24,651 nt of DNA, taken from positions 1 to 24,651 of IMG/VR virus record IMGVR_UViG_3300027896_000207. One strand, given 5' to 3'. The translations under genes and the position numbers were made by a program. Under the pieces are notes generated by a model, which saw only the letters and a program-made list of their open reading frames with translations, was not told the origin of the DNA and ran no database searches. How positions within the stretch are numbered: the stretch's first letter is position 1; the number at the start of each line of letters is the position of its first letter. This document shows, in pieces, positions 3,741-24,366 of the stretch. Origin of the DNA: a virus.

Positions 3741-3993
3741 AAACTCCCTGAAATTTGAATTTTTTCTTTACAATACATACTAAGGCGAATTTTATTCAAA
3801 GATGACAGATTTTAGTTGAGGAAAATCAACGCGCTAGGCAGAGTCTGAAAATCTATAGACATGTCCCACAATGCCTTTTAGATGAGTATCTATAGATATA
3901 TATACTCTTCTTAAGACGCTGTGGAAGTTGTTCACACATTCGAGCTAGCATAGAGAGAATCGCGTTGTTCACAGTATGTTTGCAGGGGATCAT
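3741..3993. promoter_or_regulatory. Divergent control region between portal and P-loop gene
   Basis: This 253-base gap lies between divergent genes and has no convincing ORF. It holds an AT-rich inverted repeat GAGTAT/ATACTC (3884-3907) with ATCTATAGAT at its core, another CTATAGA copy at 3852-3858, and two copies of GTTGTTCACA (3927-3936 and 3964-3973), 37 bases apart. These could be operators. A possible minus promoter for the portal is TTGAAT with TATTGT 18 bases further on, which is weak. Confidence 0.4.
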
Positions 3994-4593
3994 ATGAAGA
4001 AAATCGCTGTAATAGGCACACATTGCGTCGGGAAGACTACGTTGTGTAAGTCCATCGTAGATTATGCAATAGCCAATCAGAAGGACGCCTATTGCGTTGA
4101 AGAGGTCGTCAGGGAATGTCCATATCCTATCAATCAGAAGCATACGATTGATGCGGTGGAATGGATAATGTTTCACCAAATCCTTCAAGAGGTGGCAGCA
4201 AAGCAAAGAGGCCATGACCTCGTCGTCTGTGATAGGTCAGCATTGGATCCCATTTGCTATTACGAAGCCACAAATGAAAAAGATCCTAAAGATATTCCTA
4301 AGCACTGGGCTCTTCGACACCTAGCTCATGCACATATCAAAGAGTATGACGCAATATTTCTCATCATGCCCAATCAAGAAGAAGTCGAATTTGATGGATT
4401 TAGAGACACAGACCTTAAATTCAGAGAAAAAGTGCATGGCATATTTGAGGCAGAGCTTGAGGATATGTCAGAACAGCATCCATTTCCTGTAGATGATTTA
4501 TCAGAGCTACCACTTTACATGCTATCGTCAGGTCAGATTTTCGGTGGTTATTCTAGAACAACAAAATGGGTGTATAACAAATGTTTTCCTTAA
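3994..4593 (+). CDS. P-loop ATPase/kinase, NadR-kinase-like (AAA_28 type)
   Basis: A 199-residue P-loop protein. The Walker A motif is GTHCVGKT at residues 8-15, followed by VEEVVREC (35-42) and DRSALDP (80-86). This pattern fits the AAA_28 / NadR ribosylnicotinamide-kinase-like group of small nucleoside-kinase-fold enzymes. I start at 3994 (MKKIAVIG) because AGGGG lies five bases upstream; an ATG at 3976 lacks a site. The next gene starts inside this one, overlapping by 13 bases, and encodes a PnuC-like membrane protein, so a role in NAD precursor salvage is suggested. The P-loop fold is well supported; the substrate is inferred. Confidence 0.75.
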   Translation: MKKIAVIGTHCVGKTTLCKSIVDYAIANQKDAYCVEEVVRECPYPINQKHTIDAVEWIMFHQILQEVAAKQRGHDLVVCDRSALDPICYYEATNEKDPKDIPKHWALRHLAHAHIKEYDAIFLIMPNQEEVEFDGFRDTDLKFREKVHGIFEAELEDMSEQHPFPVDDLSELPLYMLSSGQIFGGYSRTTKWVYNKCFP

Positions 4594-4793
4594 CTTGGGC
4601 CCTCACACTATGTGCCTTATATGGCACTTATTTGAACGCCAAGAAGAAGAGAGAAGGCTTCTATTGGTGGGTTGTCACTGACGCTGCGTTCTGTGCTGTC
4701 AATTGGACGATAGACCAATATGCACTATCTGCGTTATTCTTTATCTACACACTCCTAGCTATCAAGGGATTAAGGGAATGGAAAAAGAATTGA
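4581..4793 (+). CDS. Small three-helix membrane protein, PnuC-like half transporter
   Basis: A 70-residue membrane protein with three predicted helices at about residues 3-19, 27-43 and 46-63. Basic residues follow the first helix (NAKKKREGFYWW) and there is a terminal GLREWKK. This resembles one half of the PnuC nicotinamide-riboside transporter fold, where a Lys/Arg loop precedes a FxxW helix and the protein ends G-x-x-x-W. It overlaps the kinase-like gene by 13 bases, has no clear ribosome site and is probably translationally coupled. If PnuC-like, it would need to dimerise to build a full channel. A holin or unrelated small membrane protein is the main alternative. Confidence 0.6.
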   Translation: MFSLTWALTLCALYGTYLNAKKKREGFYWWVVTDAAFCAVNWTIDQYALSALFFIYTLLAIKGLREWKKN

Positions 4794-5585: not shown

Positions 5586-5608
5586 TTCTGTCTAGCCTGT
5601 AGGTGAGT

Positions 5609-6334
5609 ATGAAAGTATACGCATATATAAGAGTATCAACTGATCTCCAAGTTGAGAGTGGTGTTGGTATTAAATATCAAAAAGACGTGTGCACGCAATG
5701 GGCTGCTGAGCGATCGATGGAAATTGAAAGATGTTTTGTCGAAGATGCTATCAGTGGCGCAAGTGGATTGGAAATGAGACCAAAGTTGATGTTAGCCATC
5801 GCCATGTTGTCCAAAGGAGATGTATTGGTAGTGGCAAGACGCGATCGCCTTGGAAGAGATGTTCTTGTGATGTCAATCATTGAGTCTGAGATTGAGCGCA
5901 AGGGAGCTAGGATAGCGTCTGTAGCTGGCGAAGGCACTGAGAATAACGATCCCACATCATTGTTAATGCGTAGGATGGTAGATGCATTTGCTGAGTTTGA
6001 TAGAAAGATCATCTGTGGACGCGTGAAAGCTGCTATGCAAGCAAAAAAGGATCGCAACGAACGCTGTGGGCACATTCGCTTTGGATATAAGCTTGCTGAT
6101 GATGGTGTGCACTTGGAAGTCAATGAAGACGACATCCCAGCCTTGCATAGGATATTGAATCTTGGGGAGAGTGGATTCACCATACCTCAAATAGTGGATC
6201 ACCTAAATGAGAATGGGCTTTTCAATCGTGGAGGTATGAAATGGAAAAAGTCGACTGTGCACAGATATCTTCAGAGGCTACGCGAAACTGGCGTCCCAAA
6301 ATATGCCAAAAGTGAGATGCAAGTTGCTTTGTGA
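5609..6334 (+). CDS. Serine recombinase (resolvase/invertase superfamily)
   Basis: A 241-residue recombinase. The N-terminal catalytic domain shows YIRVSTDLQ with the nucleophile Ser at residue 10, the ARRDRLGRD motif (about 77-84) supplying active-site arginines, and EFDRKIICGR at the start of the long helix E. The C-terminal part has the G-x-x-x-GY segment and the FTIPQIVDHLNENG...WKKSTVHRYLQ pattern of the PF07508-type DNA-binding region, but much shorter than in large serine integrases. AGG precedes the ATG at 5609; a GTG at 5603 is the alternative. It could excise, integrate, resolve or invert DNA. It has its own promoter, unlike the operon before it. Confidence 0.88.
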   Translation: MKVYAYIRVSTDLQVESGVGIKYQKDVCTQWAAERSMEIERCFVEDAISGASGLEMRPKLMLAIAMLSKGDVLVVARRDRLGRDVLVMSIIESEIERKGARIASVAGEGTENNDPTSLLMRRMVDAFAEFDRKIICGRVKAAMQAKKDRNERCGHIRFGYKLADDGVHLEVNEDDIPALHRILNLGESGFTIPQIVDHLNENGLFNRGGMKWKKSTVHRYLQRLRETGVPKYAKSEMQVAL

Positions 6335-6343
6335 ACCATAAGT

Positions 6344-6384
6344 GAGAAGCTAAGCTAAAGATTTTCTTCTTTGCTATGCTTCTC
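6344..6384. terminator. Long imperfect hairpin between convergent genes
   Basis: GAGAAGC (6344-6350) pairs with GCTTCTC (6378-6384). Inside this, AGC pairs with GCT and AAAGA with TCTTT, giving about 15 base pairs with small bulges around a short T-rich loop. It starts 10 bases after the recombinase stop and overlaps the end of the convergent HTH gene. It probably acts as a bidirectional terminator, although the T-run lies in the loop and not after the stem. Confidence 0.5.
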
Positions 6385-6738
6385 GACCTTGCCAATCTTA
6401 GAAAAATCGCTCTTCTTCTTTACAGTGATGTCCCATTTCTCAAGTAAAGCCTTAACGTCTGGCTCATTGCTTGTGAAGTTGATCTCCTCTTTCTGTCCAA
6501 GATAGAACTTTCCTAACCAGATCAAAAGAGCAGGATTTCCTTCCATTGCTTTCTTGAATTGAGCACGCCTCAGACTAGTTTTTCCAGCCTCTCGAGCATC
6601 TTTGATTACGTCGGAAAATCGGTCATGTAAGGTGTCAACATTGCATCGCATGACTGCTGCAATCTCGCCATTTGTACATTGAATGCTAGCCAATTCTCTG
6701 ATTTGCTCTTCATCAAGTTCTTTTTTTGGTCTTCCCAT
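6355..6738 (-). CDS. HTH DNA-binding protein, candidate terminase small subunit
   Basis: A 127-residue protein starting MGRPKKELDEEQ. Residues 10-45 form a helix-turn-helix (IRELASIQCTNGEIAAVMRCNVDTLHDRF), followed by the helical SLRRAQFKKAMEGNPALLIWLGKFYLGQKE, a combination seen in many phage proteins annotated as small-terminase-like. The C-terminus is basic and probably flexible. AGGGG lies seven bases before the ATG, and a good promoter built from a direct repeat lies upstream. It is on the opposite strand from TerL and 9 kb away, so a transcription-regulator role is a real alternative. The HTH is well supported; the terminase role is uncertain. Confidence 0.7.
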   Translation of the reverse strand: MGRPKKELDEEQIRELASIQCTNGEIAAVMRCNVDTLHDRFSDVIKDAREAGKTSLRRAQFKKAMEGNPALLIWLGKFYLGQKEEINFTSNEPDVKALLEKWDITVKKKSDFSKIGKVEKHSKEENL

Positions 6739-6762: not shown

Positions 6763-6792
6763 ATTATGTCAAGCTAAAACATTATGTCAAGC
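6763..6792 (-). promoter_or_regulatory. Promoter formed by a 12-bp direct repeat
   Basis: The 12-mer ATTATGTCAAGC occurs at 6763-6774 and again at 6781-6792, 18 bases apart. On the minus strand the outer copy supplies a perfect -35 box TTGACA (6785-6790) and the inner copy supplies CATAAT as the -10 (6763-6768), with a 16-base spacer. Transcription would start about 20 bases before the HTH gene at 6738. The HTH product itself could bind the repeats. Confidence 0.6.
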
Positions 6793-6942
6793 ATTTATTT
6801 TTATTCATTATTTTCGCCATTGAGCTTGCATCAAATGAACAGGAGAGCATATGATCATGTGCACAATTCAGCAGCTAGCATGGTTGTTGAGTTGGCAGTA
6901 AATCTGCAAAACATGTACAAAGACAAAAAAAAGGTAAGCATT

Positions 6943-7173
6943 ATGGAAAACAGCAAAGATTTGACGGTCAAGTTTTGGGAAGACATGAGCATGTTTGGTA
7001 CGCCAATTTATGAGCCAGCAAATGATAAAGCCTTTGAGGTGATTGAGTTCATGGGGCAAGATTATATGGATTCGATTAGCGATGCCAAGATGGATAGAAT
7101 TTATGAGTGGCTCACCAATATGGGCATTGATGTTGTGATTGCTGAGGCGCCAAGGTTGAGGCAGAGTTTATAG
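6943..7173 (+). CDS. Small hypothetical protein (76 aa)
   Basis: I use the ATG at 6943 (MENSKDLTVKFWED), which has AAAGG eight bases upstream. The frame is open back to 6784, and a GTG at 6859 behind AGGAGAGC could extend it, so the start is uncertain. The protein is mixed alpha/beta with no membrane segment and no motif I recognise. It is an isolated plus-strand gene facing the minus cassette at 7316, and a strong terminator follows at 7294. Confidence 0.6.
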   Translation: MENSKDLTVKFWEDMSMFGTPIYEPANDKAFEVIEFMGQDYMDSISDAKMDRIYEWLTNMGIDVVIAEAPRLRQSL

Positions 7174-7293: not shown

Positions 7294-7316
7294 AGGGGGC
7301 GCGTAGCCCCCTTTTT
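7294..7316 (+). terminator. Strong rho-independent terminator
   Basis: AGGGGGC (7294-7300) pairs perfectly with GCCCCCT (7306-7312) across a five-base loop and is followed directly by a T-run. It ends transcripts of the plus-strand gene at 6943-7173 just before the convergent minus-strand cassette stops at 7316. Confidence 0.85.
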
Positions 7317-7495
7317 CATTTATGGTCAGAAATACAATTTTGGCCAGCTTCACCCTCGGCAGACATTCCGCCCCTATCTTTTGCCACCCAAACATTTGCG
7401 TCTCTAGGAAGTGGATATTTAACATCTTCCATCTTGAATCCTATGACAAATGCGCAGAAAATCAACCATCTGAGAATTAACATTTGACATTTCAT
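7316..7495 (-). CDS. Small protein with N-terminal hydrophobic segment (59 aa)
   Basis: Starts at 7495 (MKCQMLILRWLIF), four bases after the previous ORF stops, with AAGG eight bases upstream. Residues 5-20 are hydrophobic (MLILRWLIFCAFVIGF), so it is a signal-anchor or exported protein with a roughly 40-residue outer part (FKMEDVKYPLPRDANVWVAKD). The frame is open back to 7618, but that region belongs to two other reading frames. It is the last gene of the 8458-7316 cassette. Function unknown. Confidence 0.6.
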   Translation of the reverse strand: MKCQMLILRWLIFCAFVIGFKMEDVKYPLPRDANVWVAKDRGGMSAEGEAGQNCISDHK

Positions 7496-7499
7496 ACAT

Positions 7500-7676
7500 T
7501 TACCTTGCACCTTGAGAATCTCGATGATTAGCTCCATGATGTGAAGCTCCAGCTGGCGTGTCACCTCTTGGACTGACAGGTCCCTTGCATAAAGTGACGT
7601 CAACAGCAACCATCCCAATCAGCATCGAAAACACCATCATGCTTATGCCCAAAAACTCTTTCCCTATTTTTCTCAT
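7500..7676 (-). CDS. Overlapping small membrane protein (58 aa)
   Basis: An ORF of 58 codons from ATG at 7676 to TAA at 7500, found by reading the second frame of this stretch. The start has AGGGG six bases upstream. Residues 9-30 are hydrophobic (GISMMVFSMLIGMVAVDV), followed by a hydrophilic Pro/Ser/His-rich tail (KGPVSPRGDTPAGASHH). A Cys at residue 30 ends the hydrophobic stretch, but its context (VTLC) is a poor lipobox. The first 77 bases overlap the end of the 7600-7803 gene in another frame, recalling nested spanin pairs, although the partner has no membrane span. Confidence 0.6.
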   Translation of the reverse strand: MRKIGKEFLGISMMVFSMLIGMVAVDVTLCKGPVSPRGDTPAGASHHGANHRDSQGAR

Positions 7677-7803
7677 AAAATTCCCCTTTTTTTTGAATGG
7701 ACTGTGAATTTTCCAAGCTGTCGAGGTAGTCTTCTCTAATCTCTCTCAACATCTCTTGCATTTGAGCAATAATTGATTCGGTTTGTGTTGTATAGTTACT
7801 CAT
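7600..7803 (-). CDS. Small helical soluble protein (67 aa)
   Basis: A 67-residue hydrophilic protein, MSNYTTQTESIIAQM, predicted as one long helix or coiled coil through residue 45 (EMLREIREDYLDSLENSQ). The tail after that overlaps the 7500-7676 gene in another frame and ends DADWDGCC. Its ATG overlaps the stop of the preceding gene as ATGA, the usual coupling signature here. No signal peptide or membrane span is present, unlike the other four cassette members. Function unknown. Confidence 0.65.
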   Translation of the reverse strand: MSNYTTQTESIIAQMQEMLREIREDYLDSLENSQSIQKKGEFYEKNRERVFGHKHDGVFDADWDGCC

Positions 7804-8078
7804 TTTGTTGCGATTAAATCCCCCATCTTTCCATGTTTCTTGTTTTTATCATGTGAATTGTGAAGATACTTGGCTTTACAAACATCTCTTGGCAAATAAT
7901 AGATTCCAGCGTTATTGGCTCTTATGACCTTGAGCTTGAGAAGCTTGCCTTTTTTATAGGTCCTAAAATGTCCGTCGCGAAAGTTCAAGCCAACCATCTC
8001 AATGTATGTCTTGAAAATCTGGCGAGCCTCTATGTGCCCAATCAGCAAGCAAAAAATAGCAAGAAAGGCGATCTTCAT
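7800..8078 (-). CDS. Secreted small protein, paralogue of the preceding gene (92 aa)
   Basis: A 92-residue protein with a probable signal peptide (MKIAFLAIFCLLIGHIEA, cut after A18). The mature part shares a pattern with its upstream neighbour at 8075-8458: YIE, then FxDGxF, a basic stretch, then RAxxxGIYxLxxD. The two are therefore diverged tandem duplicates. The mature protein is basic, with a Lys/His-rich end. It overlaps its neighbours by ATGA on both sides. The fold and role are not recognised; the pattern suggests a small beta-rich domain acting in the periplasm or outside the cell. Confidence 0.7.
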   Translation of the reverse strand: MKIAFLAIFCLLIGHIEARQIFKTYIEMVGLNFRDGHFRTYKKGKLLKLKVIRANNAGIYYLPRDVCKAKYLHNSHDKNKKHGKMGDLIATK

Positions 8079-8458
8079 CTGTTAGCCTCATAGGAGGAGG
8101 GGGTGTCGCGCGAGACATTGGGGGAGGAGGTTGTCTGCCATCTTTCATCATCTCTTGAGTCATAAGTCAAGCTCTTGTCTTGAGGCTCCCAAGCTTCGAT
8201 AGAGTCAACCCTAATGATGTCAGAGTTAAGGAAGTAGATGCCTTCCCTAGCAGCTCTTAGTCTTTTGATGTGAATTTCATCACCAGGGCGAAATGGTGTT
8301 GGCCAGACACTAAAGTAATAAATAGAAAATTCACCATCATAGAATTGAATTGAATCAAGGTTTTCTATATAGTATCTTCTAGAATCTTCAGCAAGCAAGT
8401 TTGTTGTTGACAATATAGAAAATATCGCCATTAACACAGAGAAAGCTACAGTCTTCAT
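8075..8458 (-). CDS. Secreted protein, first gene of small-protein cassette (127 aa)
   Basis: A 127-residue protein with a signal peptide (MKTVAFSVLMAIFSILSTTN, probably cut after LLA at residue 23). The mature domain carries YYIENLDSIQFYDGEF, then DEIHIKRLRAAREGIYFL, matching the paralogue encoded next. The last 35 residues are polar and probably disordered. AGAGGTG precedes the ATG. It leads a five-gene, tightly overlapping cassette (8458 to 7316). Export to the periplasm or cell surface is well supported; possible roles include lysis control, superinfection exclusion or host-surface change, with no decisive evidence for any. Confidence 0.72.
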   Translation of the reverse strand: MKTVAFSVLMAIFSILSTTNLLAEDSRRYYIENLDSIQFYDGEFSIYYFSVWPTPFRPGDEIHIKRLRAAREGIYFLNSDIIRVDSIEAWEPQDKSLTYDSRDDERWQTTSSPNVSRDTPSSYEANR

Positions 8459-8501: not shown

Positions 8502-8636
8502 CTAGGATTTTTTGTGTAGCTCTTTTTTTGCTTGACTTTCGCGCCACCTAGCTATCATTTCGTCTAGTTTTCTGCGAACTTCAATGTCTTCTGGAGTGTT
8601 GATAAGTTTTTGTGCGACTTTTTTAGACTTTTTCAA
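8502..8636 (-). CDS. Small basic helical protein with TTG start (44 aa)
   Basis: An ORF starting at TTG (8636), four bases after AGGTGG, and ending in TAG at 8502. The 44 residues are basic and helical, with KKSKKVAQKLINTPEDIEVR followed by a charged helix around MIARWRES. The composition and ribosome site suggest a real gene; the non-ATG start and small size keep confidence modest. It lies between the helicase and the secreted cassette, so it belongs to one of those transcripts. No family is recognised. Confidence 0.5.
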   Translation of the reverse strand: MKKSKKVAQKLINTPEDIEVRRKLDEMIARWRESQAKKELHKKS

Positions 8637-8742: not shown

Positions 8743-10050
8743 CTACCTAGGTATATCCATGAACCTGGATATTTCTTTATCAAATTTCAATGCTATCTCG
8801 CCAGTTGGTCCATGCCTATTCTTCAAAACATAAACTTGAGCTTCACCAGGTCTGTCATGCTTATCGTAGGAATCTCTCCTGTCTAGAGCAATCACTATAT
8901 CGCTATCCTGCTCTATAGCCCCAGACTCTTTCAAGTCACTAAGGATTGGCTTGTGGATTGACCTTTCTTCTATCTTCCTTGACAATTGAGCCAGGCAGAT
9001 AATAGGAACATTGACAGACTTGGACAGCGCCTTTAATAACCTTGTAGTTTCAGCAATCTCAAGATACCTAAACTCATGCTTATTAGATGGAGAGATTAGT
9101 TGAATGTAATCAATAAAAACGCAAGAAATATCTAACGTCTCTTTTGCTCTCTTGACTTGTGAGCAGATTCCATCTACGGTGATAGTTGACCGATCATTGA
9201 CGATCATCATTCCAGTGTCGATCTCTTCAAGAGATCTCTTAACATCCCGTATATCTTCTAAACTAAATTTCGCTGATTGTAAAATCTTTTGATCTATTCC
9301 AGAGAGTTGAGAAAATATTCTATTCTCAATTTCCTTGTAAGACATTTCAATTGAAACAAAATAGACAGCTTTCTTTTTCTTGACCATAGAGACAGCCATG
9401 TTAAGAGCCATTGCAGTCTTGCCCATTCCAGGACGAGCAGCTATAGTTACCAGCCTATTTCCTTCAATCCCACCTAGCAAATCGTCTAGTGAAGGAATTC
9501 CCAGCTGAACTTTTTCTGGGAGAGGGGCACCTCGAGCAATCTCCTCCATGTCTTCAATGGATTTTGCTGACTCTTTCTTGAAGTCTATCCCAAGCTCTCC
9601 AATCATCCTATCATCGATGTCGTAGATCCAAGCTTTTATATGTGAGAGCAGTTCACTTGTCGGCGATCTATTCTCTTTATCTAACTCTAGCTTTAACTTA
9701 GTTTCTATCTTCTCCAGTTTCCTAAATATCGAGTTATCTTTGATAATGTCCATGTAGTATTTCAAATCATCTCTACAAGAAACATAATTAGAGATAAACA
9801 GGGCCACTTTTTGAGATCCTCCAAGAGGTTCAATTACCCCCTTGTTCGTAAGATGCAAGATTGCTTTGGAAACATCTGGCTTAGTCCCATTTTTGTAGAA
9901 AGACTTTAAAGCGTCAAATATAATCTGACTTTTTAATGAACTAAAGTCATCTATTTTCAAACTTTCTATTCCATAGCACAATAAATCTTCACTTTGTGCC
10001 ATCCCTGACAACGCAAATGACTCTGAAGTCTCACAACAATTTTTTCTCAT
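8743..10050 (-). CDS. DnaB-family replicative helicase
   Basis: A 435-residue replicative helicase like P22 gp12 and bacterial DnaB, which forms a hexamer that unwinds DNA ahead of the fork. The N-terminal helical domain (about 1-110) is followed by a linker and a RecA-like ATPase domain: Walker A RPGMGKT (206-212), Walker B FIDYIQL (312-318), the DnaB motif SDLKESGAIEQDSD (371-384) and KNRHGPTG with the arginine finger (410-417). The start at 10050 has AAGGA upstream and overlaps the initiator stop as ATGA; an earlier ATG at 10074 has no site. It is the last large gene of the replication operon. Confidence 0.93.
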   Translation of the reverse strand: MRKNCCETSESFALSGMAQSEDLLCYGIESLKIDDFSSLKSQIIFDALKSFYKNGTKPDVSKAILHLTNKGVIEPLGGSQKVALFISNYVSCRDDLKYYMDIIKDNSIFRKLEKIETKLKLELDKENRSPTSELLSHIKAWIYDIDDRMIGELGIDFKKESAKSIEDMEEIARGAPLPEKVQLGIPSLDDLLGGIEGNRLVTIAARPGMGKTAMALNMAVSMVKKKKAVYFVSIEMSYKEIENRIFSQLSGIDQKILQSAKFSLEDIRDVKRSLEEIDTGMMIVNDRSTITVDGICSQVKRAKETLDISCVFIDYIQLISPSNKHEFRYLEIAETTRLLKALSKSVNVPIICLAQLSRKIEERSIHKPILSDLKESGAIEQDSDIVIALDRRDSYDKHDRPGEAQVYVLKNRHGPTGEIALKFDKEISRFMDIPR

Positions 10051-10889
10051 GAATTTTTCCTTACTTTGGAACATTGCTTAAACAAATAGGGGACTATCCC
10101 TTGGATCCTCATCCCCTTCTTGGAATCACGACAGACAATATCGATTGCCTTCCCAATGACATGTACTGAAAATCCTAGAAAATATTCTATGTCTTTTTTG
10201 TGAATTTGCATCCTCTGTGAGCCAATGGCGATGGGACGACTCAAGAACTCTCTAGTTTCAGCAACCATTTCTGCAGGACCTGGAGTAGGTGGAGGCATCC
10301 TAGGATCTGTCATCTGCCTAGGGAGAGAGATAACTTTGTCTTCAGGCTCATAGGTGCTGTTTTCAGCCTCATCAGCAAGAAATGTATTTGGAGAAAGTGA
10401 TTGCTCTGGTGAAGAGGAGCAGACTGACTTAGGCCATGACTCTTTTGGAGGTCGCTCCTCTCTGTGTTTTATACTCTTCTTATGTTCTGTATCTATATAT
10501 GTATTGGCGGGGGATGAAGCAAATTTCATGGGGGGGTGAAGTAAATTTCGTGGGTATAAAATCTTTGATTGATTTTCATACTCAAGGTCTCTAGCTTCAG
10601 CCTCAGCAAGATTTTTCCTATTATTCCAGCTCTCAATATCCCAGATTTTTCGCTCATTTTCGTTCTCAACTTCGATAATTATCAGACCAAGACGTTTGAA
10701 CTTATTTAGGTAGAGCTGAACAGAGCGAGTTGTCTTTCTTGACTTGTCTGCTAGGTATCGATTGGACGCCCAACAGTAGCCATATTTGCCCATGAGGGAA
10801 AAAATCAGAGAGTAGAACTTAAATTCTGCGTCAGTGATGTCGGGATTTGTTGCAATAATCTCAGGGATTATGCGAAACTTATCACGCAT
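10047..10889 (-). CDS. HTH replication initiator-like protein
   Basis: A 280-residue protein whose first 95 residues are a winged helix-turn-helix domain (FYSLIFSLMGKYGYCWASNR, then KTTRSVQLYLNKFKRLGLIII and RKIWDIESW), as in HTH_36-type phage replication proteins. A long polar, Pro/Ser-rich linker (about 100-210) leads to a C-terminal helical domain (HKKDIEYFLGFSVHVIGKAI and following) that is probably the helicase-contact part. It overlaps the DnaB-like helicase by four bases, the arrangement expected of an origin-binding protein and helicase pair (compare lambda O/P, P22 18/12). GGAGG lies five bases before the ATG. Two shorter paralogues precede it. Confidence 0.8.
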   Translation of the reverse strand: MRDKFRIIPEIIATNPDITDAEFKFYSLIFSLMGKYGYCWASNRYLADKSRKTTRSVQLYLNKFKRLGLIIIEVENENERKIWDIESWNNRKNLAEAEARDLEYENQSKILYPRNLLHPPMKFASSPANTYIDTEHKKSIKHREERPPKESWPKSVCSSSPEQSLSPNTFLADEAENSTYEPEDKVISLPRQMTDPRMPPPTPGPAEMVAETREFLSRPIAIGSQRMQIHKKDIEYFLGFSVHVIGKAIDIVCRDSKKGMRIQGIVPYLFKQCSKVRKNS

Positions 10890-16014: not shown

Positions 16015-17312
16015 CATCCTCACTCTCAGATAAGCAGCTTCTTTCCTTGCATGAGTCCACTGCTAGGATAAACATTTGGGAGGGGGCTGTTAGGTCTGGC
16101 AAAACTTATGTTAGTTTATGGAGATGGCTCAAGGAGCTTATATATGGACCTCCAGGCGAATATTGTATCATAGCCAGGACATATGACTCCTTCAAGCGCA
16201 ATATCCTCCCACAGCTCACGCAAATGATTGGCAGTGATGTCAAGTATTATAGTGGAAAGCGCGAGATGGTTATATTCAAAAAAACCATACATATTGTTGG
16301 TGCTGATGATGAGAGAGCTGAAAGCAAAATTAGAGGACCTACTTTTTCTGGCGCATATGTAGACGAAATTTCAATTATTCCTGAGTCAGTATTTAAGATG
16401 CTGATATCTAGATGTGCCATGCATGGCGCTAAGATTTTTGGCACTACAAACCCTGACAGCCCATATCATTGGCTGAAGAAGGACTATCTCACAGATAATC
16501 CAGATGTACGCAGTTGGAAATTTACCCTAGAAGACAATCCAGAGCTCTCCCAAGATGAAAAAGATTATCTCAGGCGCCAATATAAAGGAATCTGGTTCCA
16601 GAGGTTCATCGAAGGTAGGTGGGTGCAAGCTGAAGGAGCAATTTATGATTTCTTTGAAACTTCTCTTCACGTCATTGATCACCCTCCTGGCAGCGCTGAA
16701 TTCTATATTTGTGGCGTTGACTATGGAACTACCAATCCTTGTAGCTTTGTTCTAATAGGGATAAACAGATCCAGATATCCTAATATGTGGGTTGAGGATA
16801 TGTACTATTGGGACAGCAAGACTAAGCAAAGGCAGAAAACTGACAGTGAATATGCTGAAGATCTCATCAAATTCTTGGAGGGAAAGCCAGTAAAGGCAGT
16901 CTACATTGATCCCTCAGCAGCTTCTTTTAAACTAGAGCTTGCGCGAGAGGGTTTGCGAAATCTCTATGACGCTGAAAATGAAGTTGTCGATGGCATTCGA
17001 TTGGTTGGCAAATTCATAAGCAATGGCACCTTAAAGATCTGTAGAAAATGTGATATGCTCATCAAGGAAATTCAAGGGTATGTTTGGGATCCTAAATGTG
17101 CAAAGACTGGCGTCGATAAACCCATGAAAGACCAAGACCACGCCTGTGATGCCCTTCGCTATGCTATGTACACGCACTTTTTTGGAAAAGAGGCTGCGAG
17201 GATGACCCCACAAGATATTGACAGGCTATATAGTGAGGCTATGGGAGGAGGAAACACTCTGCCGGCACCATTTAGAGACGTGCCAGCAGAGTGTCAAAGG
17301 GGAATCTATTGA
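16011..17312 (+). CDS. terL: Terminase large subunit
   Basis: A 433-residue packaging motor with ATPase and nuclease domains. The Walker A motif is GAVRSGKTY (25-33), Walker B AYVDEI (115-120) and the coupling segment GTTNPDSP (144-151). The RNase H-like nuclease starts at about 230 with GVDYGTTNP (235-243, Asp 237), followed by YIDPSAAS (298-305) and DHACDALRYA (376-385), giving the metal-binding acids that cut concatemers. It uses GTG as start, overlapping the winged-helix gene by four bases, with GGGG eight bases upstream. It pumps DNA through the portal, which lies 12 kb away. Confidence 0.93.
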   Translation: MTSSLSDKQLLSLHESTARINIWEGAVRSGKTYVSLWRWLKELIYGPPGEYCIIARTYDSFKRNILPQLTQMIGSDVKYYSGKREMVIFKKTIHIVGADDERAESKIRGPTFSGAYVDEISIIPESVFKMLISRCAMHGAKIFGTTNPDSPYHWLKKDYLTDNPDVRSWKFTLEDNPELSQDEKDYLRRQYKGIWFQRFIEGRWVQAEGAIYDFFETSLHVIDHPPGSAEFYICGVDYGTTNPCSFVLIGINRSRYPNMWVEDMYYWDSKTKQRQKTDSEYAEDLIKFLEGKPVKAVYIDPSAASFKLELAREGLRNLYDAENEVVDGIRLVGKFISNGTLKICRKCDMLIKEIQGYVWDPKCAKTGVDKPMKDQDHACDALRYAMYTHFFGKEAARMTPQDIDRLYSEAMGGGNTLPAPFRDVPAECQRGIY

Positions 17313-17485
17313 TTTACCTGCATGTCTGCAATGTGCGACAAATCTTTCACTGACTCGTTGACTGTATTCCTCAATGTAGGCGATGGCGTGTCATACTCAA
17401 CAATGTAGAAAAGTGTTGACAAGACGAAGACTGCCAAGAGAATGAGCAATACAGATATCCATTTTGCTATCGTAGGTACTTCCAT
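17306..17485 (-). CDS. Small single-span membrane protein (59 aa)
   Basis: A 59-residue ORF from ATG at 17485 (MEVPTIAKW) to TAG at 17306, with AGGAG nine bases upstream. Residues 10-30 form one membrane helix (ISVLLILLAVFVLSTLFYIV), followed by about 29 polar residues. It overlaps the convergent TerL end by seven bases. It follows the lipoprotein gene by 11 bases, so the pair could be inner- and outer-membrane partners such as spanins, though both are short for that role. Confidence 0.65.
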   Translation of the reverse strand: MEVPTIAKWISVLLILLAVFVLSTLFYIVEYDTPSPTLRNTVNESVKDLSHIADMQVNQ

Positions 17486-17496
17486 AAAAAATACTC

Positions 17497-17679
17497 CTAG
17501 AATGGTTTGACAGGTATAGAAACTTGTGGATCAACTTCAGCATCTGTGCGAGTTGTCTCATCAACGACATCATTAGCATATCCGTGTGTGTCAGTCAGGG
17601 TGACGGTCACAGTACATGACGATATGAGGACTATTCCCACAAGAACCAAAATTGGGATTAGATGTAGAAAAACTTTCAT
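17497..17679 (-). CDS. Small lipoprotein (60 aa)
   Basis: A 60-residue protein with a classic lipoprotein signal: MKVFLHLIPILVLVGIVLIS then Cys 22 in the lipobox ISSC. The mature part is 39 residues (TDTHGYANDVVDETTRTDAE) ending in a Pro-containing tail. AGGAGG lies five bases before the ATG. Lipid anchoring is well supported. It may be an outer-membrane spanin subunit or a lipoprotein involved in superinfection immunity; I cannot separate these from the sequence. Confidence 0.7.
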   Translation of the reverse strand: MKVFLHLIPILVLVGIVLISSCTVTVTLTDTHGYANDVVDETTRTDAEVDPQVSIPVKPF

Positions 17680-17726
17680 GAGACCTCCTTGTTTTCCTCA
17701 CCTCATAACCTTGATCAATAAATTTG

Positions 17727-17906
17727 TCAACTTGACTTTTTTGATGTGTCATCAGGCGAGAGGTCTATGTCGAGTCCAGTCTCTTTCTTAATGATATCTT
17801 CACAAGCTTCTTCCACAGGATTATCCTTCCCAAGAAAAAATATGCTGATGATTGCCACTATGGCAGAGATCGCCACGATGATGGTTATAACTAAGACGCT
17901 ATTCAT
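17727..17906 (-). CDS. Small membrane-anchored protein (59 aa)
   Basis: A 59-residue ORF from ATG at 17906 (MNSVLVITIIVAISAIVAI) to TGA at 17727. One N-terminal membrane helix spans about residues 3-25, followed by an acidic cytoplasmic or periplasmic part containing KDNPVEEACEDIIKKETGLD and SPDD. Small phage proteins with this anchor-plus-NPVEE pattern seem familiar to me but have no known role. It overlaps the end of the glycosyltransferase gene by eight bases and is probably translated by coupling, since no good ribosome site is seen. Confidence 0.65.
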   Translation of the reverse strand: MNSVLVITIIVAISAIVAIISIFFLGKDNPVEEACEDIIKKETGLDIDLSPDDTSKKSS

Positions 17907-18582: not shown

Positions 18583-20562
18583 TCACAAAGCCCTTATGTA
18601 TAAGTTTCTAGAAAAGTTTGACGTATCTTCTAGGGTTATACCAAGGTTTGCATCGGTTGGCAATTGAAAATCTACAGCATTGTTGTAAAAATATGGGTAC
18701 TTGGTGTTTTCTAAAATTCCGCCAGTTCCTCCACAAACGAAATAGTCGTTGCCAAATGTTGTCGCGTACAAAGGTGTTGTAGTGCTAGTTGATATTCCAG
18801 TCCATGTAACAGCGTCTGTTGATGTATATATTCGTGTATCATCTCCACAAGCAACAAAATGACCACCTCCATAAGTTAATGAACGCATTGTGGAAGTCTG
18901 AACTGTTAACGTCGTCCAAGATATTGCGTCAGTTGATGTTGCAAATGCCCCACTGGGTCCACCATAAAGATATTTACTATCAGCATACAGCAAGGTTTGT
19001 ATTGCAAATAATGTACCAGATGATTGAGATGTCCAGGTAATTGTATCAGTGGATGTTCTAATTTCTCCATTAAATCCTCCACATCTCCATTTTCCATCTA
19101 AATATTGAATAGTTTTTGGAGTACTCATACCTGGAGTCTTAGTATCCCAAGTAATTGCGTCGGTAGAAGTTAATATTGTGGCACCACTAAAAATAGTACA
19201 AGCATAAAGACTATTTCCGTACGACAATGACGTTATAACTGATACTGTTCCACTTGTTCTTGGAGTCCATGTAATAGCGTCTGTAGAACTCATTATCATA
19301 CCGCCATTTCCACCAAGAACATACACGCTATTTCCAAATGTCAAAGCTGTTATTGAACTTGATGTTCCTGGTGTAACTGTACCCCATGTTATAGCATCTG
19401 TGGACGTTCTTAAAACTCCACCATTTCCACCAAATACATATTCAGTACCATATGTTAGTGCGTTTATAGAGCTAGTTGTCCCACTAGTTCTTACATCCCA
19501 TGTAATTGAGTCCGTAGATGTATATAAAACCCCACCAAAACCAGCATACACATACTTTCCTCCAGCATATATAAGGGCGTTTATTTGTGAAGTTGTCCCG
19601 CTAGTTCTTACATCCCATGTTATAGCGTCTGTAGATGTATATAAAACCCCACCAGCGCCAGCATATGTATATAGAGTAGGTCCGAAAATTACTGATAATA
19701 TATTGCTTGTTGTGCCAGAAGTTCTTCTATTCCATGTTACACCATCTGATGAAGTAAGCAATACACCACTTTGCGCTCCAGCTAAAATCTTAGTTCCATA
19801 AGTAAGTGAATTTATTGTGGCTATTGTTCCAGTACCTATAAGTTTCCATGTTACGCCATCTGTTGAAGTGTCAATTATTCCTGACTCGCAACCTGCAACA
19901 TAAAGCCCACCCCCATAAGTAATAGATAGAACCGATGATGTTGTCCAACTAGATTGAGTGACCCAAGATATAGCGTCCGTTGAGGTTCCTATTACTCCAC
20001 CACTTGCGCCATAAAGATATAAACCATTTCCATAACCAAGGCTATAAATACTACTAGTTGTATTGCTAGTTTGAGAAACCCATGTTATAGCGTCTGTTGA
20101 GGAATATAGTTTCCCAGTAGATGAACCATAGAGATATATACCATTTCCATAAGTTAGAGAAGATATAGAAACTAAAATTCCGCTTGTTCTTGGTGTCCAT
20201 GTAATAGAATCTGTTGAAGTACACAATTCTCCAGTATCGCCAGCATGTACAAATAGGTTGTTCCCAAAAGTCATAGCTCTTATAAGGGTGTTAGTTCCTG
20301 ACGTTCTTAAATACCAACGATATAACCCAGCGTTAATTAATCCTACGTGGGTAAAAAGAGTGGAATATGTCGCTTGAGAGATAATAGAACCATCACATTT
20401 AAGCCAATATCCTCCAAGGTAAGAATCTCCCCCATAATTTGCAAAATATTCAAGCGCTCCTATGGGTGGAATTTGCGCAGTGCTTAGAGTAGAAAACGAT
20501 CCAGTTCCATCATAAACAGGTATTCCGGCACTTTTTAAATTGATTGCGTTGTTTGTAACCAT
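18583..20562 (-). CDS. Tail fibre/adhesin with split collar domain and propeller repeats
   Basis: A 659-residue virion protein. Residues 1-25 hold the NNAINL...YDGTGSF module shared with two neighbouring genes. Residues 32-78 match the N-terminal half of the phage tail-collar domain (IGALEYF, GYWLKCDGS, ATYSTLF). Residues 83-619 are about 14 repeats of roughly 38 residues, each with W, RTSGT, an ITALTYGN-like strand, a GGxGGVL turn and a closing STDAIT, resembling blades of a beta-propeller. The last 40 residues (NNAVDFQLPTDANLGI) look like the collar's C-terminal half. It is probably a receptor-binding fibre or tail tip. The start follows the previous stop directly. Confidence 0.82.
   Translation of the reverse strand: MVTNNAINLKSAGIPVYDGTGSFSTLSTAQIPPIGALEYFANYGGDSYLGGYWLKCDGSIISQATYSTLFTHVGLINAGLYRWYLRTSGTNTLIRAMTFGNNLFVHAGDTGELCTSTDSITWTPRTSGILVSISSLTYGNGIYLYGSSTGKLYSSTDAITWVSQTSNTTSSIYSLGYGNGLYLYGASGGVIGTSTDAISWVTQSSWTTSSVLSITYGGGLYVAGCESGIIDTSTDGVTWKLIGTGTIATINSLTYGTKILAGAQSGVLLTSSDGVTWNRRTSGTTSNILSVIFGPTLYTYAGAGGVLYTSTDAITWDVRTSGTTSQINALIYAGGKYVYAGFGGVLYTSTDSITWDVRTSGTTSSINALTYGTEYVFGGNGGVLRTSTDAITWGTVTPGTSSSITALTFGNSVYVLGGNGGMIMSSTDAITWTPRTSGTVSVITSLSYGNSLYACTIFSGATILTSTDAITWDTKTPGMSTPKTIQYLDGKWRCGGFNGEIRTSTDTITWTSQSSGTLFAIQTLLYADSKYLYGGPSGAFATSTDAISWTTLTVQTSTMRSLTYGGGHFVACGDDTRIYTSTDAVTWTGISTSTTTPLYATTFGNDYFVCGGTGGILENTKYPYFYNNAVDFQLPTDANLGITLEDTSNFSRNLYIRAL
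18706..20316 (-). repeat. About 14 tandem coding repeats (38-40 codons each)
   Basis: This stretch encodes the tandem units of the tail protein. Thirteen STD or SSD boundaries (STDAITW and variants) separate 14 Trp-headed units. The most alike units lie in the middle (DVRTSGTTS twice in succession, near 19480-19640), where the DNA is also most similar, suggesting recent duplication or gene conversion there. Confidence 0.85.
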
Positions 20563-20563: not shown

Positions 20564-21310
20564 TTAACTTACCAACCATCCTTGAAATAGTGTTTTAAAA
20601 TCATTTAATCCGCCGTCGATTGTTACATTATCGCCAGCAGATCCATCACATCTTATTGTAACCTTTACAGTATCTAGGGCTGCCAGGGGGATAACAGCGT
20701 TGACGCTTGAGAAAAGATTAAGCCCTGAAGGAGCACCAAACCCATTCGCTCCATTGTAGCGAGTGCCGGCAGATGTTACAAGCTCAATATTTGCTTCTTG
20801 CTTCAAATTTAATGTGGTACAATATGCGCTAGCTGAAAAATAGTAATTACCAGATACTGGAGCAGTAAAGAACCCAGTTACCGTACTATAATTTGCTCCT
20901 ATATTTGTTATAGTTGCATCAAAAACAATAGAATAGACAGCGCCATTGCCTGTAGCGTTTGGAACTGACGCGCTTAGATATGCGAAAAACAATGGCTGTA
21001 GAGGTTTATTGACTTGTCCTGCTGGATATACAACTATAGAGTCTCCAGCTCCATACGCAGCGCCTGAAGAGATCTTGTATTTATCAGCGTCAGCATTGTC
21101 AGCGCCAAAGGTCCAACTTTGTACCCCAGTGATGACAGATTGAAATACTGGACTAGCTGCGGCAGCTCCTGCAACTCTAGCAATAATGGAGGCTGCTGAT
21201 GCTGGTGTATTGCTCAAATTTCTCACAAGGAGTGTTCTATTAACTCCAGCCAAGCTCGATCTAATATCAAAGTCATTAGTGCATTCATTATCAAGTATAT
21301 TAATTGTCAT
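20564..21310 (-). CDS. Tail/virion protein with C1q-like C-terminal domain
   Basis: A 248-residue secreted-free virion protein. The N-terminal half starts MTINILDNECTNDFDIRSS and is Ala/Ser-rich. The C-terminal half (about 105-248) has strands ending FFTAPVSGNYYFSASAYC, then VIPLAALDTVKVTIRC and DGGLNDFKTLFQGWLV, a pattern like the C1q/TNF-type jelly roll seen in some phage fibres and spore or adhesin proteins. It overlaps its upstream neighbour by ATGA and ends one base before the next gene, so it is part of the tail-fibre operon. A trimeric tip or receptor-binding role is likely but not proven. Confidence 0.7.
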   Translation of the reverse strand: MTINILDNECTNDFDIRSSLAGVNRTLLVRNLSNTPASAASIIARVAGAAAASPVFQSVITGVQSWTFGADNADADKYKISSGAAYGAGDSIVVYPAGQVNKPLQPLFFAYLSASVPNATGNGAVYSIVFDATITNIGANYSTVTGFFTAPVSGNYYFSASAYCTTLNLKQEANIELVTSAGTRYNGANGFGAPSGLNLFSSVNAVIPLAALDTVKVTIRCDGSAGDNVTIDGGLNDFKTLFQGWLVS

Positions 21311-22194
21311 ACTTTTGTTAGATTTCCTTTAATACTTGTTGCTACCCATGTAGTATTCGCCGTAATGCAAAGAAGATCGATCCCACCATATGGGTCAATG
21401 CTAGCTATGTATCCTGCTGCGCCAGCTGTTGTTGCATTAAGATTGTCAAAGATTATTTGCTGAGCAGGGACTGCATTTTGATTTATTTGCCATCCTCCTG
21501 CACTCCCACCTTGAATCTTTATGATTGATCCAGCTGCTGCGACAAGAGGAAGCGTAAAGGTTGTCAATCCAGGAAGGGTTGTGTAATACCCTCTATTTGG
21601 AGTTATAGGTTGTGCCGCAATAGCTGCAAGCCACTGAAATGATGAGATGTTTGCTAATGAGACAACCCCTACGGCTGTTGAAAAATATGTTGGGTCAAAT
21701 TGCGCTATACCCTTGACTGCTGTTGATGCATTGACAATGGAGACAACGCCAGCAAGTGTTGTAAATTGAGCTGCATTGTATTGGGAAACACCCTTGGCTA
21801 CTGTGCTAGCGTCTTGTACTGTTGTTTTAATCTCACCAGTGGCAATGAATCCTTGAGTTGACACACCTTGGGCAGCATCGCCAGTAACTAAGCACAGCCC
21901 TGCAATGGGACCTACTGGTAGTCCTACATCACCTTGGAGATTTGTGACTCCAGCGACTCCAGCGCCAGAAGTTGTAGTCCAGACAGCAGCCTTGCCACCT
22001 CCTGGAAGATTGACCAAGTTTGTAAGCTGCCAAATTCCATTAGTGTTTAAATCAATCCAAGTGTCTCCTAAGACGTAGTTTCTAACATCCTGGGCATTTA
22101 TAGGCGCTCGCCTCTTTAAATGTATCTGCCCAGGATATGTTGACTCAACACCTAGGTAAGCTGTTGGATTGTTTGCAGGTAATTGAGTGCTCAT
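21307..22194 (-). CDS. Tail fibre-like protein with shared C-terminal module (295 aa)
   Basis: A 295-residue Gly/Ala/Thr-rich protein. The N-terminus (AYLGVESTYPGQIHLKRRAP) is unlike that of the paralogues; the middle has two similar segments, TVAKGVSQYNAAQFTTLAG and TAVKGIAQFDPTYFSTAVG, each followed by VVSI or VVSL. The C-terminal 90 residues end GGIDLLCITANTTWVATSIK, matching three neighbouring genes. The beta-rich, low-charge composition fits a trimeric fibre. AAGGA lies upstream at a long spacing. It is probably an accessory tail fibre. Confidence 0.72.
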   Translation of the reverse strand: MSTQLPANNPTAYLGVESTYPGQIHLKRRAPINAQDVRNYVLGDTWIDLNTNGIWQLTNLVNLPGGGKAAVWTTTSGAGVAGVTNLQGDVGLPVGPIAGLCLVTGDAAQGVSTQGFIATGEIKTTVQDASTVAKGVSQYNAAQFTTLAGVVSIVNASTAVKGIAQFDPTYFSTAVGVVSLANISSFQWLAAIAAQPITPNRGYYTTLPGLTTFTLPLVAAAGSIIKIQGGSAGGWQINQNAVPAQQIIFDNLNATTAGAAGYIASIDPYGGIDLLCITANTTWVATSIKGNLTKV

Positions 22195-22213
22195 TTCTTT
22201 GTCTTTCCTTGCC

Positions 22214-22804
22214 TTATACTACAGTAATGTTGCCAATTACAGAGCGAACATACCATGTTGTGCTTGCAACTAAGCAAACTAGATCTATACAATCAAAAGC
22301 ATTTGTTGACGTAAGAGATCCACCAGCTCCAGGAGTCGTTGAAGACGAACCTATGACAATATTTTGTCCTACTCCTTGGACAATATTCCAACCTGCTTTC
22401 ATGCCAATAATTGACACGACATCTCCAACTGCTGACACCGCTGGCAATGTGAACGCTAACGATGTTACCTTGTTAGCTCCATAGCCATGATTTACGACTA
22501 GAGCAGTATCAATCGTTGGAACGCTCCAAGTAAGTCCACCACCTACAGCATCAAGTTGAATAGATCCAGCGCCATTAGTTACAGTAATACCAGCGCCAGG
22601 AGTAATTGTAGTTGTTGCGGGATCATTTCCTGTACTACCAACTACTAATTGACCATTTGTCATTGCGCCAAGACTCGTGATGTCATTGGACGCAGCGCCT
22701 ACGAGAACACGATGATTAGTCGTAGTGACAGCAGTGAAACCCCCAGCCCCATCATAATTTGCTAAACCAGACGCTTTTAGATTAATTGCGTTATTCGTTC
22801 CCAT
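22214..22804 (-). CDS. Tail fibre-like paralogue (196 aa)
   Basis: A 196-residue protein almost colinear with the next gene upstream. It has the N-terminal NNAINLKASGLANYDGAGGF module, NGQLVVGSTGNDPATTTITP, GAGITVTNGAGSIQLDAVGG, then a C-terminal domain ending DCIDLVCLVASTTWYVRSVI. The two genes arose by tandem duplication. No enzyme motif is present. The repeated Gly/Thr-rich beta pattern fits a structural fibre or head-decoration part. AAGGA precedes the ATG. Confidence 0.75.
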   Translation of the reverse strand: MGTNNAINLKASGLANYDGAGGFTAVTTTNHRVLVGAASNDITSLGAMTNGQLVVGSTGNDPATTTITPGAGITVTNGAGSIQLDAVGGGLTWSVPTIDTALVVNHGYGANKVTSLAFTLPAVSAVGDVVSIIGMKAGWNIVQGVGQNIVIGSSSTTPGAGGSLTSTNAFDCIDLVCLVASTTWYVRSVIGNITVV

Positions 22805-22823
22805 GATTTATCTTCCTTATATT

Positions 22824-23414
22824 TTAGGTTAATGAGATATTGCCAACTACAGATCGAGCATACCAAAGTAAGTCAGCTACTAAACATACAAGTTCAATAC
22901 AATCATTTGCACCAGTTGACGTAATTAACCCGCCAGCCCCAAGTGTTGAAGCAGATGAACCAATAAAAATTCTTTGATTTGCTGCTTGAGTGATTGACCA
23001 GGTCCCTTGCATGCCAATGACTGAAACAACAGAGCCTACAGCAGCAGCAGCAGGAAGAGCCATTGAGAGCGCGCCAGCTTTGTTTGCGCCAATACCTGCG
23101 TTAATAGCAAGAGTTCCATTAACAGCGATTACAGTCCAAGTAAGTCCACCACCAGTGGAATCAATTTTAATAGATCCAGCGCCATTAGTAATACCAATAC
23201 CAGTACCAGCAGAGAGAGTTGCTGGAGAAGGATCATTTCCAGTACTTCCAATCAACAATTGACCATTAGTAAGGGGTCCAGCGCTTGTGATTCCATTAGA
23301 CGCAGCACCTATAAGTGGGCAGTGGATGGTTGTGGTTTCAGCAGAGAAAGTTCCTGCGCCATCATATTTTGCGAGCCCTGACGCGTTGAGGTTAATGGCG
23401 TTATTTGTTGCCAT
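22824..23414 (-). CDS. Tail fibre-like paralogue (196 aa)
   Basis: Same length and layout as the gene after it: NNAINLNASGLAKYDGAGTF, NGQLLIGSTGNDPSPATLSA, GTGIGITNGAGSIKIDSTGG, and a C-terminal end DCIELVCLVADLLWYARSVV. AAAGGA lies upstream of the ATG. The two copies have drifted mostly in the middle of the C-terminal domain, where surface loops would be expected. A structural or receptor-facing role is likely; no ligand can be inferred. Confidence 0.75.
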   Translation of the reverse strand: MATNNAINLNASGLAKYDGAGTFSAETTTIHCPLIGAASNGITSAGPLTNGQLLIGSTGNDPSPATLSAGTGIGITNGAGSIKIDSTGGGLTWTVIAVNGTLAINAGIGANKAGALSMALPAAAAVGSVVSVIGMQGTWSITQAANQRIFIGSSASTLGAGGLITSTGANDCIELVCLVADLLWYARSVVGNISLT

Positions 23415-23428
23415 AATTTATTTTCCTT

Positions 23429-23965
23429 TTAAGCAAACGTTAAGTTTCCAACTGAGTTTATAATCTGAAATTCTGTATTAGCCGTTACACAGACTAATTC
23501 TATTGTGTCTTTAACTTGAGTTGCTGTTAAGCTTCCAGTCACTCCAGGCGTTGTTGTAAGAGCGCCTAAAGATATACTTTGAAGAGCATTTTGGGTTAAC
23601 GTCCACAAGTTCCCATATCCAGCAATATGGAAAGTATCTCCAATTGCAGCAGCAGCAGGTAGAATAAAAACAACTACTGGTGCGCCTTTAGCTATATATC
23701 CATTACTATTTACAAGTGCGTTTGGATTTGTTGCGCTAGAGACAGCAGTCCAGGTTGTTCCACTTCCCATAGCTGAAATTGTGATTGTTCCAGGTCCATT
23801 TGCAATTCCTACGCCAGCACCAGCAGTCAAAGTTGCGACTCTGATATTTGGAGCAGCTGTTGAACCTATAAGCAATTGACCATCAGCAGTAACTTGACCA
23901 GGATATTGTGTGCCATCGAACCTTACGTTATTAGCCCAAACAACTCCATTATTAAAACCAGGCAT
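23429..23965 (-). CDS. Tail fibre-like paralogue with different N-terminus (178 aa)
   Basis: A 178-residue relative of the two 196-residue proteins. It keeps DGQLLIGSTAAPNIRVATLT, GAGVGIANGPGTITISAMG and the C-terminal DTIELVCVTANTEFQIINSV, but begins MPGFNNGVVWANNVRFDGTQ instead of the NNAINL module. This suggests a different attachment to the virion or a separate partner. AGGA precedes the ATG at a long spacing. It is co-directional with, and 14 bases from, the next gene. Confidence 0.73.
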   Translation of the reverse strand: MPGFNNGVVWANNVRFDGTQYPGQVTADGQLLIGSTAAPNIRVATLTAGAGVGIANGPGTITISAMGSGTTWTAVSSATNPNALVNSNGYIAKGAPVVVFILPAAAAIGDTFHIAGYGNLWTLTQNALQSISLGALTTTPGVTGSLTATQVKDTIELVCVTANTEFQIINSVGNLTFA

Positions 23966-23977
23966 AAATAATAAGTC

Positions 23978-24364: not shown

Positions 24365-24366
24365 TT

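What the first reader, a model, noticed from the sequence alone, without database searches (positions are those of the whole stretch)
7316..8458. Five-gene cassette of mostly exported small proteins, including tandem paralogues
Genes at 8075 and 7800 both have signal peptides and share YIE..FxDGxF...RAxxxGIYxLxxD. They are followed by a soluble coiled-coil protein and two small membrane-anchored proteins, with 4-base overlaps or tiny gaps. No known lysis or immunity family is recognised. Such a unit may act at the cell envelope, as a lysis regulator, exclusion system or host-converting factor.
Basis: partly seen in the sequence, partly recalled or inferred. Interest (0 to 1): 0.62.

Follow-up and report, generated by a model that had tools for sequence, protein, structure and literature searches.

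The report
Phage proteins mimicking chlamydial exported proteins
A tailed phage that probably infects amoeba-associated relatives of Chlamydia carries two tandem exported proteins whose core is a distant copy of a domain found in a large, uncharacterised family of paired exported proteins of these bacteria, suggesting that the phage acts on its host's envelope by imitating that host system.

Summary
The cassette is real and A (8075-8458) and B (7800-8078) are true paralogues: the tandem A-B pair recurs in two other related phages. A, B, D and E have hydrophobic N-termini; C is soluble. No protein matches Pfam, PHROGs or NCBIfam, and the shared ~60-residue beta domain has no solved-structure match. 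Profile searches place the domain. It is the exported core of small proteins of Chlamydiota that carry a Cys-rich ribbon tail and lie immediately upstream of a ~300-residue exported partner. That partner family occurs in 99 of 234 Chlamydiota genomes and 0 of 200 control genomes. A chlamydial-only profile ranks phage A/B members as its top six among 10,843 phage ORFs. A phage-only profile hits eight ORFs at chlamydial loci, all the partner's upstream neighbour. The phage lacks both ribbon and partner. A hairpin ends the cassette in six phages, which suggests transcription with the replication genes rather than the terminase. Best reading: phage-borne, Sec-exported mimics of a host envelope module, acting early (exclusion, envelope modification or decoy). 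The homology is well supported; the mechanism is inferred. A classical spanin or lysis cassette is disfavoured.

The parts
8502..8636 (-).
   Evidence: Reading frame with upstream GGTGG. Small basic ORFs lie at the same position (after helicase or Rep, before A) in L012, L015 and L083. Homology by position only, not tested by sequence.
8075..8458 (-). Gene A: 127 aa, hydrophobic N-terminus, beta domain about residues 24-85 (8204-8389), disordered tail
   Evidence: Homologues in L021 (41%), L083 (45%), L008/L009 (32%). AlphaFold mean pLDDT 82.9, blocks of 84-96 over the first 60 residues.
7800..8078 (-). Gene B: 92 aa, hydrophobic N-terminus, paralogue of A, 4-base overlap with A
   Evidence: 55% and 58% identical to B of L021 and L083. 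Best-scoring phage ORF with a chlamydial-only profile, E = 0.0013 among 10,843 ORFs.
7600..7803 (-). Gene C: 67 aa, soluble helical protein, 4-base overlap with B
   Evidence: No hydrophobic segment. Similar short acidic helical proteins in the same place in L083, L012, L016, L008 and L003; window C is a weak match to them (13-25% identity).
7500..7676 (-). Gene D: 58 aa, hydrophobic N-terminus, overlaps C by 77 bases in another frame
   Evidence: Exported-type ORFs overlap C out of frame in L083 and L012. Coding status uncertain.
7316..7495 (-). Gene E: 59 aa, hydrophobic N-terminus
   Evidence: Codon score like the core genes (0.349). No homologue found.
7294..7312 (.). Hairpin AGGGGGC-loop-GCCCCCT just after the stop of E, putative terminator for the cassette
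   Evidence: stable hairpins follow the last cassette gene in L083, L021, L012, L016 and L008 too. A T-tract follows it on the + strand only in the window.
8743..10074 (-). DnaB-like replicative helicase, immediately upstream of the cassette on the same strand
   Evidence: PF03796 E = 5.9e-75, phrog_19 E = 1.6e-82.
6355..6738 (-). Terminase small subunit, downstream of the cassette beyond the hairpin and a convergent + strand ORF (6784-7173)
   Evidence: phrog_309 E = 2.7e-8; same order in relatives.

Best explanation
A and B are two Sec-type exported, single-domain proteins of a tailed phage of Chlamydiota. Their domain is homologous to the exported N-terminal domain of small, Cys-ribbon-tailed chlamydial proteins, which lie directly upstream of a ~300-residue exported partner in an expanded two-gene host module. 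The phage keeps only the domain, in duplicate, and drops the ribbon tail and the partner. Shown: paralogy, homology, gene order, absence of the partner from the phage loci searched, and a hairpin that separates the cassette from the terminase gene. Inferred: transcription with the replication genes, so early in infection; the proteins reach the periplasm or outer envelope and engage the host partner protein or its target as mimics or decoys, changing the envelope of the infected cell (most likely exclusion of competing phages or blocking of a hostile host module). C, D and E would be accessory parts of the same unit.
For: Phage-only profile finds chlamydial chromosomal proteins (best E = 3.2e-5 in one genome); the iterated profile finds members in 7 Chlamydiota genomes at E <= 1.1e-4 against two weak hits (0.004, 0.05) in 398 genomes of a control phylum. 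Chlamydial-only HMM: top six of 10,843 phage ORFs are all A/B family. Phage-only HMM: 8 of 8 hits among 1,079 ORFs at 30 chlamydial loci are the ORF just upstream of the large gene; the chlamydial profile finds that neighbour at 28 of 30. Profile-profile probability 94%, P = 1.2e-7. Partner family in 99 of 234 Chlamydiota genomes, 0 of 200 controls. Named examples: Protochlamydia naegleriophila pPNK and Simkania negevensis pSn, the only two of 72,556 plasmids hit. Portal relatives in 10 of 234 Chlamydiota genomes versus 3 of 219 controls, one of them the seed. Hairpins end the cassette in six phages. Tandem A-B in three phages.
Against: The phage proteins lack the Cys ribbon and the partner, so they may have a different task. 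Sequence similarity is low (about 12% in the profile alignment) and the fold has no known relative. Export rests on hydropathy only. Nothing shows binding to the partner, whose own function is unknown. Host assignment rests on MAG bins, which can hold stray phage contigs: L083, with the clearest cassette, sits in a methanogen bin. In L003 and L004 the A-like gene lies elsewhere in the genome, so the five-gene unit is not fixed.
Confidence: 0.42

Rival explanations
1. Lysis cassette. The hydrophobic small proteins D and E act as holin or spanin-like factors, C/D form a spanin-like overlapping pair, and A/B regulate or assist disruption of the cross-linked chlamydial outer envelope, where a peptidoglycan endolysin is little needed.
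For: C and D overlap out of frame as Rz/Rz1 do. The cassette lies next to the terminase small subunit, a common place for lysis genes. No lysozyme, amidase or holin family was found by Pfam among 44 ORFs of the related 40.5 kb contig.
Against: C has no membrane segment. D has no lipobox in the window, L083 or L012. A hairpin separates the cassette from terminase in six phages, and a convergent ORF lies between. L008 has A and C but no D or E before its hairpin. A/B are homologous to host proteins. Another small-membrane-gene cluster with a lipoprotein beside TerL (17306-17906) is a better lysis candidate.
Confidence: 0.17
2. Host-conversion morons: A and B modify how the infected chlamydia interacts with its amoeba host (cargo for the inclusion or cell surface), with no role against other phages or against the partner protein.
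For: The host family is expanded in Chlamydiota with larger genomes (up to 13 matches of the partner in one genome) and mostly not seen in the listed small 1.0-1.2 Mb genomes; A and B look exported.
Against: The cassette is placed with replication genes; the phage forms lack the ribbon tail; most relatives show no match to the window's recombinase, and conversion mainly pays for temperate phages.
Confidence: 0.2
3. A and B are virion-maturation or structural helper proteins whose similarity to the chlamydial family reflects only a common small beta fold.
For: Fold similarity between small beta domains is common; no function is proven.
Against: Reciprocal profile searches single out the same genomic position 8 of 8 times and rank A/B first among thousands of ORFs, so homology rather than fold convergence; N-terminal export segments do not suit virion proteins; the position is away from the structural genes.
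Confidence: 0.08

Closest known systems
Chlamydial small exported ribbon protein plus ~300-aa partner, e.g. PNK_RS12560/PNK_RS12565 on Protochlamydia naegleriophila pPNK and SNE_RS00355/SNE_RS00360 on Simkania negevensis pSn (all 'hypothetical' or 'zinc ribbon domain-containing')
   Same: Exported N-terminus followed by the same domain (profile match in both directions).
   Different: Phage proteins lack the C-terminal Cys ribbon and have no large partner gene; they come as a tandem pair with a soluble helical protein instead.
Rz/Rz1 spanin pairs
   Same: Two small genes overlapping out of frame, one with an export signal, near terminase.
   Different: C is not a membrane protein, D is not a lipoprotein in the window, transcription seems tied to replication genes.
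Phage superinfection-exclusion envelope proteins (T5 Llp, lambdoid Cor, T4 Imm/Sp; from own knowledge)
   Same: Small exported or membrane proteins made by the phage and acting at the envelope.
   Different: No sequence match; function untested; here the proteins resemble a host exported family.
A0A6J5KV14, uncharacterised fragment from an uncultured Caudovirales phage (BFVD)
   Same: Best viral structure match, probability 1.00, TM 0.50 over 56 columns.
   Different: E = 0.055 only, 20% identity, no function known.

Membership tests
Chlamydial two-gene exported module (small ribbon protein plus large partner) | Hydrophobic export N-terminus | tested here: met
   Hydropathy 2.56 (A) and 3.02 (B) over 12 residues; no dedicated predictor was available.
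Chlamydial two-gene exported module (small ribbon protein plus large partner) | Homologous beta domain ending in R/D-x-x-GxY-x-x-x-x-D | tested here: met
Chlamydial two-gene exported module (small ribbon protein plus large partner) | C-terminal Cys ribbon (CPxC...C..C) | tested here: not met
   A has no Cys, B has no ribbon (sequence).
Chlamydial two-gene exported module (small ribbon protein plus large partner) | Large ~300-aa partner gene immediately downstream | tested here: not met
   Partner HMM hits none of the phage loci L001-L086 nor the fetched phage contigs.
Rz/Rz1 spanins | Inner-membrane i-spanin with N-terminal TM and periplasmic coiled coil | tested here: not met
   C has maximal hydropathy 0.37.
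Rz/Rz1 spanins | Outer-membrane lipoprotein o-spanin with lipobox | tested here: not met
   No lipobox in D of the window, L083 or L012; an ORF of L003 at that place has LTGC.
Rz/Rz1 spanins | Out-of-frame nested or overlapping genes | tested here: met
   C/D overlap of 77 bases.
Superinfection-exclusion proteins | Sequence match to a described exclusion family | tested here: not met
   No Pfam, PHROGs or NCBIfam family for the cassette proteins at a meaningful E-value.
Superinfection-exclusion proteins | Blocks infection by related phages when expressed | not testable with these tools
   Needs an experiment.
Phage of Chlamydiota | Relatives present in genomes of the phylum above background | tested here: met
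   Portal in 10 of 234 Chlamydiota genomes versus 3 of 219 controls, including the seed genome.
Phage of Chlamydiota | Integrated copy with chromosomal flanks, or CRISPR spacer match | tested here: inconclusive
   Many hits are separate contigs of 35-41 kb; the one partial portal in a 125 kb contig (G159) was fetched, but no window protein matched that stretch. CRISPR spacers were not searched.

The most novel reading that the evidence does not exclude
The expanded chlamydial two-gene module is itself a conflict or defence system at the envelope (large effector with a small exported partner), and the phage carries stripped, duplicated copies of the small partner as an exported antidote or decoy that disarms it: a periplasmic anti-defence strategy not previously described.
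Probability: 0.13. Interest if true: 0.85.

Novelty: new variant of a known kind. Interest (0 to 1): 0.6.

Why it matters
It gives an unnamed domain its first context and links a clade of uncultured tailed phages to Chlamydiota, a phylum whose best-known phages are small ssDNA microviruses (own knowledge). It also exposes a large uncharacterised host gene family: a two-gene exported module in about 40% of Chlamydiota genomes, in up to 13 copies, with no Pfam model. The phage copies offer a handle on it: whether A/B bind the large partner is directly testable. The domain can also serve as a sequence marker for chlamydial phages in metagenomes.

Tried and rejected
Single-protein scans of IMG/VR with A and B gave no relatives; relatives came only through the portal. 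DNA and protein comparison with isolated phages: no match for the cassette or A. Pfam, PHROGs, NCBIfam and PADLOC: nothing meaningful for the cassette. Sequence search of the PDB with the domain or the partner: nothing credible (antibody chains at E >= 0.03). Foldseek of both models against the PDB: E > 1. An alignment of all A/B members was too divergent for a pattern scan. Profile scans with A-only and B-only alignments re-found only L021. Spanin hypothesis rejected for C/D on anatomy. The long TTG form of E (7316-7618) was rejected in favour of the ATG at 7495, as its first part has a low codon score. Literature searches found no description of tailed chlamydial phages with such genes or of the two-gene module; PMC7846284 reports phage-derived gene groups (terminase, tail tip) on two chlamydial plasmids.

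Full report
WHAT IS THERE. The window is a 24,651-base IMG/VR virus fragment. Overlaps are 4 bases for A/B and B/C, 77 bases (out of frame) for C/D, and D to E leaves a 4-base gap. A small basic ORF (8502-8636, TTG) precedes A and was missed. A strong hairpin at 7294-7312 follows E. N-terminal hydropathy marks A, B, D and E as exported or membrane-anchored and C as soluble. D is the least certain gene.

ARE A AND B PARALOGUES? Direct BLASTP gives E = 7e-5. A portal-protein scan brought in 80 related phage contigs. Two related phage contigs, L021 and L083, carry the same tandem A-B pair; B is 55-58% identical and A 41-45%. L008/L009 carry one A-like gene at the same place, and L003/L004 carry one A-like gene elsewhere in the genome. 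AlphaFold on shallow alignments gives a small beta domain for A (mean pLDDT 83, blocks of 84-96 over the first 60 residues) and a similar one for B (77, about 90 over the first 50). Neither has a solved-structure counterpart.

WHAT THE DOMAIN IS. Profile searches in the 234 genomes of the phylum of a 'Parachlamydia sp.' MAG, which holds a relative of this phage, found chromosomal proteins with an export N-terminus, the same domain and a C-terminal Cys ribbon. Almost every one lies immediately upstream of a ~300-residue exported protein with motifs GYTLxGxKP and GIxLGYGxxN, which has no Pfam model. That partner is found in 99 of 234 genomes, in up to 13 places in one genome, and in none of 200 control genomes. 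In 72,556 plasmids it is found only on Protochlamydia naegleriophila pPNK and, weakly, Simkania negevensis pSn; in both, a small protein of the same type lies just upstream. The phylum's identity is supported by MOMP (PF01308) hits in five of its genomes and in none of the 14 named controls.

IS THE HOMOLOGY REAL? It was tested both ways with non-overlapping training sets. A profile of 24 chlamydial small proteins taken at the partner loci, searched against 10,843 phage ORFs, puts A/B family members at ranks 1 to 6 (window B first, E = 0.0013). A profile of phage proteins only, searched against 1,079 ORFs at 30 chlamydial loci, hits eight ORFs at E <= 0.05, all eight being the ORF immediately upstream of the large gene; the chlamydial profile finds that neighbour at 28 of 30 loci (most of those 28 were in its training set). 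Profile-profile comparison gives 94% probability, P = 1.2e-7, over 50 columns. In 398 control genomes the combined profile gives only two weak hits. Each score is modest; the agreement on position is what convinces.

HOST. Portal relatives occur in 10 of 234 Chlamydiota genomes (nine at E below 1e-100) and 3 of 219 control genomes, one of them the genome that had seeded the control set. With the domain evidence this makes Chlamydiota the likely host. MAG bins are imperfect: L083 sits in a methanogen bin.

HOW IT MOST LIKELY WORKS. Shown: duplicated domain, export-type N-termini, homology to a host exported protein, absence of ribbon and partner, placement after the replication genes, hairpin after the cassette in six phages (window, L083, L021, L012, L016, L008), and a convergent ORF between cassette and terminase. 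Inferred: transcription with rep/dnaB, so early in infection; action in the periplasm or outer envelope; binding to the host partner protein or its ligand as a mimic or decoy. The outcome is most likely exclusion of competitors or blocking of a host module; host conversion is the nearest alternative. C and D/E may be helper proteins; their role is not resolved. The closest non-mimic rival is a lysis cassette: no endolysin or holin family was seen by Pfam among 44 ORFs of the related 40.5 kb contig, which fits a host poor in peptidoglycan, but C is not membrane-anchored and the hairpin separates the unit from terminase.

LIMITS. No signal-peptide predictor and no complex prediction were available. 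PHROG output for the related contig listed 25 of 42 families. The number of phage genomes with the domain is small (six or seven distinct), and the donor (phage or host) is not determined. The hairpins are predicted structures; termination and the timing of transcription were not measured. Literature was searched only in an open-access library.

Noticed in passing
window 3976-4793 +: NadR-like AAA_28 ATPase (PF13521, E = 2e-17) overlapping a 70-aa ORF that matches only the C-terminal third of the PnuC transporter (NMN_transporter positions 113-175, E = 2.5e-10): a NAD-salvage pair with a truncated transporter. The ATPase is shared with several relatives.
   Followed up: partly
window 17306-17906 -: Three small ORFs beside TerL: two single-TM proteins and a lipoprotein-type ORF (LISSC); the lipoprotein and one TM protein are conserved in the related phages L083/L105 and L084/L108. 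Better candidates for lysis or envelope functions than the reported cassette.
   Followed up: partly
window 5603-6334 +: Serine recombinase (Resolvase PF00239, E = 2.4e-30); only a weak match in one other contig (L070) among 80 relatives, so it may be a recent acquisition.
   Followed up: no
window 20564-24430 -: Run of tail or appendage proteins including a C1q-like domain (20564-21310) and tandem paralogues starting M(G/A)TNNAINL (22214-23414); next to it a long protein of TSTDAITW repeats (18583-20562).
   Followed up: no
window 6784-7173 +: Convergent ORF between cassette and terminase, conserved on the opposite strand at the same place in L003, L008, L012, L015, L021 and L083; function unknown.
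   Followed up: no
L151-L180, L185, L186: The chlamydial ~300-aa partner family (GYTLxGxKP...GIxLGYGxxN) is expanded, up to 13 matches in one genome, sometimes in frames of about 600 aa, in 99 of 234 Chlamydiota genomes; no Pfam or PADLOC model.
   Followed up: partly
L083 (contig CAIYHQ010000095.1): A 40.5 kb phage contig with the clearest A-B-C-D cassette is filed in a Methanomicrobiales MAG; the domain evidence suggests a misbinned chlamydial phage.
   Followed up: partly
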